From: Rapana venosa
Lineage: Eukaryota > Mollusca > Gastropoda > Neogastropoda > Muricidae
DNA: 64,000 nt
Reading direction: 5' to 3'
Assembly: GCA_028751875.1 (NCBI GenBank)
Contig: CM054134.1
Coordinates: forward strand, 68,039,839-68,103,838
Of the stretch, positions 2,643 through 5,713 are shown piece after piece. Each line of letters opens with the position of its first letter. The stretch's first letter is position 1. The notes under the pieces were generated by a model that saw only the letters and a list, made by a program, of their open reading frames with translations, made no database searches and was not told the origin of the DNA. The position numbers and the translations under genes are program-made.

Positions 2643-2771
2643 ATGTTGAGGCAGTTCCCTGTAAGCAAGTTGTGTTTGCCACCAACAGCAGCCAGAATGC
2701 TGGTTAAGGGAGGTCTGTCTGATTTCAAATCACAGTGCCTGCATCACGTTATTTGTGCTGGTGAGCCTGTG
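2643..2771 (+). CDS. ACSM: ACSM exon variant a (alternative exon)
   Basis: Acceptor CCAACAG, donor GTG|GTAAGT, 129 bp, phase 0 at both ends, 43 residues beginning MLRQFPVSKLCLPPTAARML and ending CAGEPV. It is 67% identical at protein level (29/43) to the next exon and begins exactly 200 bp before it. It encodes the strand-helix segment just before the A5 motif, near the acyl pocket in related structures (family knowledge). It is probably used as an alternative to 2843-2971. Confidence 0.85.
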
Positions 2772-5713
2772 GTAAGTGTGTGTATGTATGTGTGTGTCAA
2801 CTCAAAGTGCAGATGTACTGAAATGGCGTCTGTTCAAAACAGGTATTGAGGGAGTATCCTGTAAGCATCTTGTGTATGCCACCAACTGCAGCCAGAATGC
2901 TGGTTAAGCAGGATCTGTCAGATTTCAAAACAAAGGCCCTTCGTCGTGTTGTGTGTGGTGGTGAACCTGTGGTAAGTGTGTTGTGTCTTATTTTTGCAGA
3001 TTGGTTTTCATGTTGAGATATTTGAAGTACACACACAGGGATGTGTATGTATACCCCCACATATGCAGATTTGTACATGTTCACAGACACACATACATAC
3101 TCACAAGACTCTCACACATACAGCTCCTACCAGAATTGAGGGAGCTTTGGTCTTATTGAATAAACTAGATAAATATTATTACTTTATGGACACAAATTTG
3201 AGAATAAAGCTGAAAGTATTGATCAACATTGGAGATGTCTGTATCTCTTGGGTCTGGTTTGCACTGGGATTTCTGAATAAAAGAAAGGGTTAAAGCAGAG
3301 CAGTCCTGTTATGCAGTCAGAACCTGCATTTCCATTCAAAGTGATTTCTCTTCCTCATTGAACCTGATGCAGTATAAACAAAATTGTCTTATTCAATGCC
3401 CCTTCATTTGCTGGTTTTAGGGTGACTTCAAGTCTTGGTTTTTCCTCCATTTTCTTTTCTGTGGTGACTATTTTACTTTACTTTTTCTTTACCCCTTAAC
3501 TCTTGAGGAATTGTTGGGGAAGTGCACTGGATCTAGAGATTCTAGGGAGACTGTTGTAGGAGGGAAGAGGAGACATCGTCATTCTGAAGTGGGCATTTCA
3601 CTAAGTCTGGCTCTTGGATAACCGCTTTGCTGTTGTCAGTAGACTGATCAGTGTATGTTGCCATGCATTTGTAGATCAGAACAGTATCACTGAGCACCAT
3701 TTATTTATTTATTTTTTGTGAGGATAATGGAATAAGCATTCATGTACATTTTTACATCCAGTCTCCGTGTGTATGCAGTTCTGTAGATTTTGTCATCCAT
3801 TCCCACTGGTACACAATGGCCTATTCTTCCAAAAAGTTGAACAGGTTTTAACATGTGTGTAAGATGTTCTGCATTATTTCGCACACAGGACCTCAGTTTA
3901 TAGTCTCATCTGAAGGACTTTAAAGGGATCAGCTGCATTAAGTAACCTCTCCTAGGTGGTGGTCTCAAAGTGGTGTGACATTGATAGCTACTAGTGGACT
4001 GTTTGATCTGTGTGTTTGGTAGTATGAGAATGAATATGTTTTTATGAAATTACATCAAGATGAGTGGTATTGGACAGCTTTGCTGGTATCAGAAAATTAA
4101 ATTTCAAGGACGAAAAGTGACAGTAATGCAGTCAACAACAACAAAATGACATTAATGCAGGCTTCTAATATTATGTAAAAGTGAGTGTGTTTGTGTGTGT
4201 GTGTGTGTGTTTTGTTTACTGAAATCCTCCTTGGCCCAAGAGGGGTCAAAGGCGAATTAAATCTGGAATCTTTGTGTGTGAGTGTGTGTGTGTGTGTGTG
4301 TGTAAGTCTTCAATTTTAACATCTTTCCACTTTAAGTGATACCAGATGGCCCCAAAATAGGAGACTGAATACAAGAGATTGAGATAGAGAGAGTGAGAGA
4401 GAGAGAGATCTACTCTGTGTGTGCGTGTGCATGCGAGTGTGCATGCATGTGTGTGTATGTGTGTGTGTGTAATAAAGAGTAATAATAAAGGAAATACACA
4501 AATAGTATTCTTAACATAAACAGATCAAGAACAACATTTTTCAATAAATGAAATTCAAAGAGAACTACAACTACAATAAATGCCTTATAGGACTTAACAA
4601 TAAACCTTTAGCAATGTCAAATGTTAGCTTTACATTGTTCAAAACTTCGTCAATGGAGTTCTCAGAAAAGGCAGGGAGATGAGGTTTTAAATTCTCACAT
4701 TCAAGTATGATATGGGTATTTGAAATATGTATGTTTGTCCATCGTGTCCGACGATGACCTCCAAAACAGCAGAGGAGGCAGCTGCTGTTTGGAAACTGGG
4801 CAGAAATTTGATTATAGTGGAGATGCCTTGCCCACAGCACATCCCCACTCTCTCGGCCAAGTGGGCATAAGGACAGTCAGCATTGGAGATGCTCTCCAAA
4901 GGCCAACCAGCCCCCAGGGCTGCAGCACATAAGGACTGTGCAGTCAAGCCTCCTAGTCAGAGAGTCATAGTCGATCACTAAAGACTAAGCTGTAAAGTGG
5001 AATTCCATGAGTGGGAAAACCACTGGTCATACAGCCTCTCACCTTGCTGTTGCCCCCAGCGTCAATGGTTTAATCAAGAACCGTGATAAAGCCCAGGCGC
5101 TGACGGCACATTTAACATCCGTGCTGAATTTTGTCATGAATGAATTTAATCTTATCCTGAAAAATAATGTGTGTGTGTGCATTTGTTTGTTGTTGTTATT
5201 ATTATATATTACTATAATTTATTCTTTTATTTCGAGGAAAATGGAAAAAGCACTCGTGTGCTTTTTTTTACATCCTGTCCCCATTTGTATGCAGTTTTTG
5301 TAAATTTTGTAATTGGTTCCTACTGGCACACAATGGCCTACTCTTACAAAAAATGGAACGGGTTTTAACATGTGTGCAAGATGTTCTGCATGCGTTCGCA
5401 CACATGACTTCAGTTTATAGTCTCATCTGAAGAACTTTTAGGAGGAGTGGAGTCGCCACTGATGATAACTCCTGAGGAAAAATCCTCTTGGACGAGATGT
5501 GTGTGTTTGATATGTCAAATGCTGTCTCATTTTAATATGTATGATACCCCTTTGACCTATATGGTTTATTTTATGTTGTGTAATTTTAATTTTAATATGC
5601 CACCCATAAGTTCTCATTCTGAGATAATAAAGTAGTCTTGAGTCTTATTCTTTATCCAAAAAAGCTAAATCTTTTTGTTATGCAAAGAAAAAAACTCATT
5701 ATCCCTTTATTTA

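What the first reader, a model, noticed from the sequence alone, without database searches (positions are those of the whole stretch)
2643..2971. Mutually exclusive exon pair in an ACSM acyl-CoA synthetase
Two 129-bp exons, both phase 0-0, both with GTG|GTAAGT donors, begin exactly 200 bp apart with a 71-bp intron between them. Their peptides are 67% identical, and 14 changes cluster at positions 1-12, 23-24 and 30-39 while PPTAARMLVK is constant. The segment precedes the A5 motif and lies near the acyl pocket in related enzymes, so the switch could give two substrate ranges from one gene. Both reading frames are intact after clear divergence, which argues that both are under selection.
Basis: partly seen in the sequence, partly recalled or inferred. 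Interest (0 to 1): 0.85.

Follow-up and report, generated by a model that had tools for sequence, protein, structure and literature searches.

The report
Tandem-duplicated exon in snail ACSM gene
A sea snail's gene for a fat-activating enzyme carries two diverged, interchangeable copies of one exon side by side, probably used one at a time, which is a known way for animals to make two protein versions from one gene; nothing yet shows that both are used or that the enzyme's choice of acids changes.

Summary
In detail: two 129-nt, phase 0-0 exons (A 2643-2771, B 2843-2971), 71 nt apart, 103/129 nt and 29/43 aa identical, in an ACSM gene whose other exons seem single. I assembled the whole gene (8 exons lie upstream of the window): either copy gives an intact 611-aa enzyme. 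The A-B intron is tenfold shorter than the next shortest (715 nt), its best branch-point match is 50 nt from the donor (the usual steric limit), and A and B combine weak acceptors with strong donors. Mutually exclusive splicing is the best guess (about 0.5), but no transcript was found. Against a dead copy, flanks have diverged more than exons, and Nucella sides with A at 6 and B at 5 of 14 differing sites. Substrate switching is speculative: residues at the published pocket indices are alike in both. The kind is known (ACSL1/ACSL6 gate exons, another segment). In passing: 4 of 5 complex intronic repeat arrays in this gene lie on or directly after splice donors.

The parts
2643..2771 (+). Exon copy A, 129 nt, phase 0-0, MLRQFPVSKLCLPPTAARMLVKGGLSDFKSQCLHHVICAGEPV
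   Evidence: translation and splice sites
2772..2842 (+). 71-nt intron between the copies; GTAAGT donor, AG acceptor
   Evidence: the other 15 gaps between exons of the gene are 715-6540 nt
2821..2821 (+). Best branch-point match (TACTGAAA), 50th nt of the 71-nt intron, 21 nt before its end
   Evidence: pattern scan; inferred, not mapped
2843..2971 (+). Exon copy B, 129 nt, phase 0-0, VLREYPVSILCMPPTAARMLVKQDLSDFKTKALRRVVCGGEPV
6401..6475 (+). Constant exon e2, holds A5 motif YGQTET
8567..8647 (+). Constant exon e3
10732..10833 (+). Constant exon e4
13042..13169 (+). Constant exon e5; its 3' end and donor lie in a 58-bp array of 3.0 copies (13122-13293)
13885..13984 (+). Constant exon e6; its 3' end and donor lie in a 34-bp array of 5.1 copies (13976-14149)
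14863..14982 (+). Constant exon e7
17554..17646 (+). Last coding exon e8 with stop codon

Best explanation
One internal exon of a mitochondrial-type ACSM gene, seemingly single in this snail's assembly, was duplicated in tandem (shown). Each copy can join exon e-1 to exon e2 in frame and gives a complete 611-aa acyl-CoA synthetase (shown from DNA). The two copies are most likely spliced mutually exclusively (inferred): the 71-nt intron between them puts the likely branch point about 50 nt from the A donor, at the steric limit, so that A-to-B joining is disfavoured, and the two weak acceptors compete for the e-1 donor (inferred). The isoforms differ at 14 of 43 residues over superfamily motifs 9 and 7, between the aromatic gate and A5; most of the differences do not fall on published pocket indices, so I expect tuning of stability, domain motion or chain preference rather than a clear second substrate range (speculative).
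For: Homologous tandem exons with equal length, phase and intact sites. Complete 611-aa ORF with either copy; in a search of the assembly 14 of the 15 other exons matched once each, the short e-3 not at all. The A-B intron is 71 nt against 715-6540 nt for the other 15 gaps; branch-point match at nt 50, 21 nt before the intron end; about 50 nt is the published steric threshold. Of 16 acceptors B has the lowest pyrimidine content (tied with e-1) and A the third lowest; e-3, A and B are the only 3 of 16 donors with full GTAAGT. Flanks diverged more than exons: 0 of 100 simulations at 20% divergence were as dissimilar as the real flanks. Of the 14 differing sites Nucella has the A state at 6, the B state at 5, neither at 3, so change seems spread over both copies. 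Among 206 proteins of 100 aa or more held from capped hit lists, none has two adjacent copies.
Against: No transcript evidence. 50 nt is at, not below, the steric limit. A+B inclusion is in frame, so nothing downstream would remove it. Omega 0.67 does not exclude drift. The Littorina and Babylonia entries stand for one member sequence each, so no second isoform seems recorded there. No excess RNA structure (z 0.32).
Confidence: 0.5

Rival explanations
1. Duplicate with one working copy: one exon (either) is spliced in nearly always and the other is skipped or rarely used and drifts, its frame still open by chance.
For: Differences by codon position 8/8/10; omega 1 not rejected (2dlnL 0.65), omega 0.2 rejected (6.53); chance of no stop 0.42-0.45 if all 26 changes fell in one copy, 0.62-0.65 for 13; weak acceptors; no second isoform seems recorded for Littorina or Babylonia.
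Against: Differences from the Nucella state are balanced (6 versus 5), whereas a dead copy should carry most of them; no indel in 129 nt while flanks have diverged strongly; all four splice dinucleotides and both GTAAGT donors are intact.
Confidence: 0.32
2. Both copies are included together, giving a 654-aa enzyme with a 43-residue insertion before A5.
For: Lengths and phases allow it; the A donor is strong; 71 nt is long enough for many animal introns (recalled).
Against: It would repeat motifs 9 and 7 inside the adenylation domain; 0 of 206 proteins held show adjacent copies (capped lists); branch-point match only 50 nt from the donor.
Confidence: 0.1
3. Mutually exclusive pair that switches acyl substrate range.
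For: The segment covers motif 9 and most of motif 7; position 39 (A or G) aligns to index 456, next to nucleotide-contacting index 457, and position 12 to 422, next to index 421; a related splice switch changes the gate in ACSL1/6.
Against: Residues 11, 19 and 40 (indices 421, 429, 457) are identical in both; index 456 is [GA] across the superfamily; the gate motif DMVWNISDTGW is in constant exon e-1 and, by my alignment, index 487 in constant e2.
Confidence: 0.15

Closest known systems
ACSL6 and ACSL1 fatty-acid gate exons (PMC1543647; abstract and Results read)
   Same: Mutually exclusive homologous exon pair in an acyl-CoA synthetase of the same superfamily, proposed to tune substrate entry
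   Different: There a 26-residue gate segment is switched (Phe or Tyr); here a 43-residue segment after the gate is duplicated and the ACSM gate motif stays constant; the ACSL variants were found as cDNA, here no transcript is known
OGDH exons 4a/4b (PMC7969005; passages)
   Same: Metabolic enzyme, mutually exclusive exons, restricted intervening intron, branch point near the 5' splice site as the block to double inclusion
   Different: OGDH branch points are mapped (25-41 nt in human, 46 nt in sunfish) and kept in vertebrates; here a predicted one at 50 nt in a single genome
Tandem duplicated exons in general (PMC9013439 abstract and Results; PMC9741552 and PMC5740500 passages)
   Same: Homologous neighbouring exons, often mutually exclusive
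   Different: Human cases are mostly ancient and conserved; this pair is seen in one genome and its age is unclear
Human ACSM2A (PDB 2vze and others)
   Same: Whole-protein homologue; B+e2+e3 align to it over 94 residues of equal length
   Different: The searches made showed no such exon pair in ACSM genes ('ACSM' absent from the text of PMC5740500 and PMC9741552)

Membership tests
Mutually exclusive exons | Neighbouring homologous exons of matching length and phase | tested here: met
   129/129 nt, phase 0-0, 103/129 nt identical
Mutually exclusive exons | Intact splice sites and frames on both | tested here: met
Mutually exclusive exons | Exactly one of the two in each mature transcript | not testable with these tools
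   no RNA data held; protein searches listed nothing above 81% identity
Mutually exclusive exons | A mechanism that blocks double inclusion (steric, frame, U2/U12, RNA structure) | tested here: inconclusive
   Branch-point match 50 nt from donor, at the threshold of under 50; frame does not block; all introns looked at have GT-AG ends; structure z 0.32
Mutually exclusive exons | Both copies kept by selection or conserved in relatives | tested here: inconclusive
   omega 0.67, likelihood interval from 0.2-0.3 to 1.5-2; flanks more diverged than exons; no relative's genome available
ACSM (medium-chain acyl-CoA synthetase) | AMP-binding domain, closest to ACSM proteins | tested here: met
   PF00501 on 95 aa at 6e-17; nearest by identity are an unnamed Nucella protein (81%) and ACSM3-like proteins of Littorina (69%) and Babylonia (68%) over 90-100% of the query
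ACSM (medium-chain acyl-CoA synthetase) | Gate motif D-x6-D-x-G-W and A5 YGQTE | tested here: met
   DMVWNISDTGW in exon e-1, YGQTET in e2
ACSL gate-type splice switch | The alternative exons carry the gate residue | tested here: not met
   the gate motif lies in the constant exon e-1

The most novel reading that the evidence does not exclude
A snail ACSM gene makes two enzymes by mutually exclusive use of exons A and B, enforced by a branch point at the steric limit: a second acyl-CoA synthetase family that has recruited such a switch, in a different part of the pocket; the duplication arose in a gene whose splice donors repeatedly seed tandem arrays.
Probability: 0.35. Interest if true: 0.55.

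Novelty: new member of a known kind. Interest (0 to 1): 0.35.

Why it matters
If both copies are used, this would be a splice-controlled enzyme switch at an early or middle stage, in an acyl-CoA synthetase family other than ACSL and at a site other than the ACSL gate. It would give a compact test of how a duplicated exon becomes mutually exclusive (steric block first, divergence later). If one copy is dead it is an ordinary exon duplication.

Tried and rejected
Transcript evidence through the protein database: a 163-aa query e-1+A+B+e2, meant to find short transcript-derived pieces, gave 3 proteins among 37 candidates, 38-40% identical; among the 120 best hits listed for the full-length A isoform none is above 81%. 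Double-inclusion models: of the 208 proteins held (two are A and B themselves, the rest from capped lists), 206 are 100 aa or longer; 198 have one copy of the segment, 5 none, 3 two distant copies (long fused gene models), none adjacent.

Competing RNA structure: 251 nt around A and the short intron fold no better than shuffles (z 0.32, 116 of 200 shuffles at least as stable).

Assembly artefact (two haplotypes laid end to end): rejected because the copies differ by 20% in DNA and 14 of the 15 other exons match once in the assembly.

Donor-repeat pattern as a genome-wide habit: for 20 of the 29 matches outside this locus, in 18 fetched stretches, no complex array (period 18 or more, score 100 or more) lay over the match or began within 400 nt after it (0 of 20). 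Many of these look like single-exon genes and few show a donor, so the control is weak. A search for a multi-exon family did not complete. A paper search for minisatellites with splice donors (12 of 14 papers listed, none read) showed no title on this.

Isoforms X1 or X2 named for Ruditapes, Mercenaria, Mya, Aplysia, Physella and Dreissena could not be resolved, because only cluster representatives are shown. Paper searches were used for background only.

Full report
What is there. The window holds the 3' part of an ACSM gene on the + strand. The later exons are 6401-6475, 8567-8647, 10732-10833, 13042-13169, 13885-13984, 14863-14982 and 17554-17646, each matched by tblastn with snail homologues.

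The whole gene. The window is part of a 2.28-Gb assembly. I took 60 kb upstream and found eight more exons, 21.9 to 3.9 kb upstream of window base 1. With either A or B the gene reads a complete 611-aa protein with what looks like an N-terminal leader. A search of the assembly with the Nucella protein (45 matches listed) gave 16 in this locus: A, B and 14 of the 15 other exons once each, the 55-nt e-3 not being matched; the 29 matches elsewhere are at most 45% identical. Only best candidates are scored there, so 'single' holds at that sensitivity. The A peptide matched only A and B at E<=0.001; the same search with B did not complete.

Relatives. The closest protein listed is from Nucella lapillus (Muricidae), 81% over 90% of the A isoform; Littorina saxatilis and Babylonia areolata are at 69% and 68%. 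The species is thus probably a neogastropod (inference). Each of these three entries stands for one member sequence. As the database is clustered at 90%, a second isoform should have joined the cluster, so none seems recorded; the Nucella entry is a 'hypothetical protein' whose annotation may not list isoforms.

Age and selection. Differences between A and B fall 8, 8 and 10 on codon positions 1, 2 and 3; dN 0.21, dS 0.32 (NG86). A pairwise codon likelihood gives omega 0.67; omega 1 is not rejected (2dlnL 0.65), 0.2 and 2 are (6.53 and 4.39). In selection-free simulations with 26 changes in one copy no stop arises in 42-45% of runs, and 14 or fewer aa changes in 13-14% of those; with 13 changes no stop in 62-65%. 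So open frames alone are weak evidence. Two results point the other way. Flanking intron sequence beyond the splice sites aligns no better than shuffles (up 28 of 200, down 92 of 200 shuffles reach the observed score). If a plain 200-bp tandem duplication is assumed, 71 nt of flank should be homologous; the real flanks look like a simulated divergence of about 40%, not the 20% of the exons (as dissimilar: 0 of 100 simulations at 20%, 8 at 30%, 45 at 40%, 97 at 50%). This assumes no indels and breakpoints at the 200-bp unit. And at the 14 differing sites Nucella has the A state at 6, the B state at 5, neither at 3; Littorina 1, 4, 9; Babylonia 2, 6, 6. One decaying copy next to one constrained copy should look lopsided. 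A and B are as far from each other (29/43) as from Nucella (31/43 and 30/43), which would allow a duplication about as old as that split, or faster change after a later one; the segment is among the less conserved parts of the protein anyway (Nucella to Littorina 26/43). Low synonymous divergence beside strongly diverged flanks is not explained; gene conversion or splicing signals in the exons are possible.

Splicing layout. The A-B intron (71 nt) contrasts with the other 15 gaps (715-6540 nt). Its best branch-point match, TACTGAAA, has the A at nt 50 of the intron (window 2821), 21 nt before the intron end. A 5'ss to branch-point distance under about 50 nt is the published limit for steric exclusion (passages of PMC5740500, and PMC7969005); this case sits on it. 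Of 16 acceptors in the gene B has the lowest pyrimidine content (tied with e-1) and A the third lowest; only e-3, A and B of 16 donors carry full GTAAGT. All ends are GT-AG and the exons are 129 nt, so neither end-type mismatch nor frameshift would stop double inclusion. RNA folding shows nothing unusual.

Position in the enzyme. The exon covers conserved motif 9 and most of motif 7 of the adenylate-forming superfamily (motif table seen in passages of PMC6122825 and PMC8388817). Aligning by hand on P14 (index 424) and G40 (index 457), residues at index 421 (lines the luciferin site), 429 (contacts product in a methylmalonyl-CoA synthetase) and 457 (contacts nucleotide) are identical in A and B; differing positions 12, 37 and 39 fall at 422, 454 and 456, and 456 is [GA] across the superfamily. 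Index 487, linked there to chain length, falls by my count in constant exon e2; the short/medium-chain gate motif D-x6-D-x-G-W (PMC1543647, Results read) lies in constant exon e-1. I could not compute distances in a structure, so effects on the pocket are open.

What is known. ACSL1 and ACSL6 have a mutually exclusive gate exon pair (PMC1543647). Searches of the held library for mutually exclusive exons with acyl-CoA synthetase (15 papers, titles and abstract starts seen), with gastropod (10 papers), and for ACSM3 with alternative splicing and exon duplication (none) showed no report of this pair; that is no proof that none is in print.

Repeat arrays at donors. Between first codon and stop, tandem arrays with period 20 or more and score 200 or more (thresholds set after seeing them) lie at five places, all intronic or across an exon end: three span a donor (e-3, 30 bp x 9.4; e5, 58 bp x 3; e6, 34 bp x 5.1), one begins at intron base 8 after e-7 with units that carry copies of the e-7 end and donor (45 bp x 3.4), one (7943-8065) is mid-intron; no acceptor is in such an array. 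Another begins 21 nt after the stop and two more lie about 1 kb beyond it. By a separate 40-nt test 3 of 14 donors other than A and B, and 0 of 14 acceptors, have a copy of 28/40 or better within 400 nt, against 2.0% of 1126 random intron sites of fair complexity, or 4.6% of all 1500. In 20 other exon-like matches none was seen, a weak control. A single-gene precedent of a minisatellite that gives multiple splice donors is recalled, not looked up. The A/B duplication may be the largest of such local duplications.

Verdict. A real tandem exon duplication in an ACSM gene, probably used mutually exclusively (0.5), possibly with one working copy only (0.32). A new member of a known kind; the substrate-range claim has no support beyond position in the chain.

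Noticed in passing
window 13122-13293, 13976-14149; L003 and L004 upstream at about -9354..-9076 and -18311..-18157 relative to window base 1: Four tandem arrays of this ACSM gene lie on or directly after splice donors, their units repeating the exon end plus the donor (58 bp x3, 34 bp x5.1, 30 bp x9.4, 45 bp x3.4); no acceptor shows this. Cause and use of the extra donors unknown.
   Followed up: partly
window 17667-17869: 25-bp unit repeated 8.1 times beginning 21 nt after the ACSM stop codon.
   Followed up: no
window 24781-30362: Large minisatellite with a 47-bp unit, about 105 copies at 25484-30362, preceded by a related 45-bp array.
   Followed up: no
window 55396-58605, - strand: Open frame of 1069 codons that reads like a non-LTR retrotransposon endonuclease and reverse transcriptase (recognised by eye); further reverse-transcriptase-like frames within 30318-33492 and an RNase-H-like one at 44440-45075.
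   Followed up: no
window 49569-50009, + strand: 146-codon open frame that resembles the CFAP20-like start of WDR90 (recognised from memory, not tested), possibly a gene downstream of the ACSM gene.
   Followed up: no
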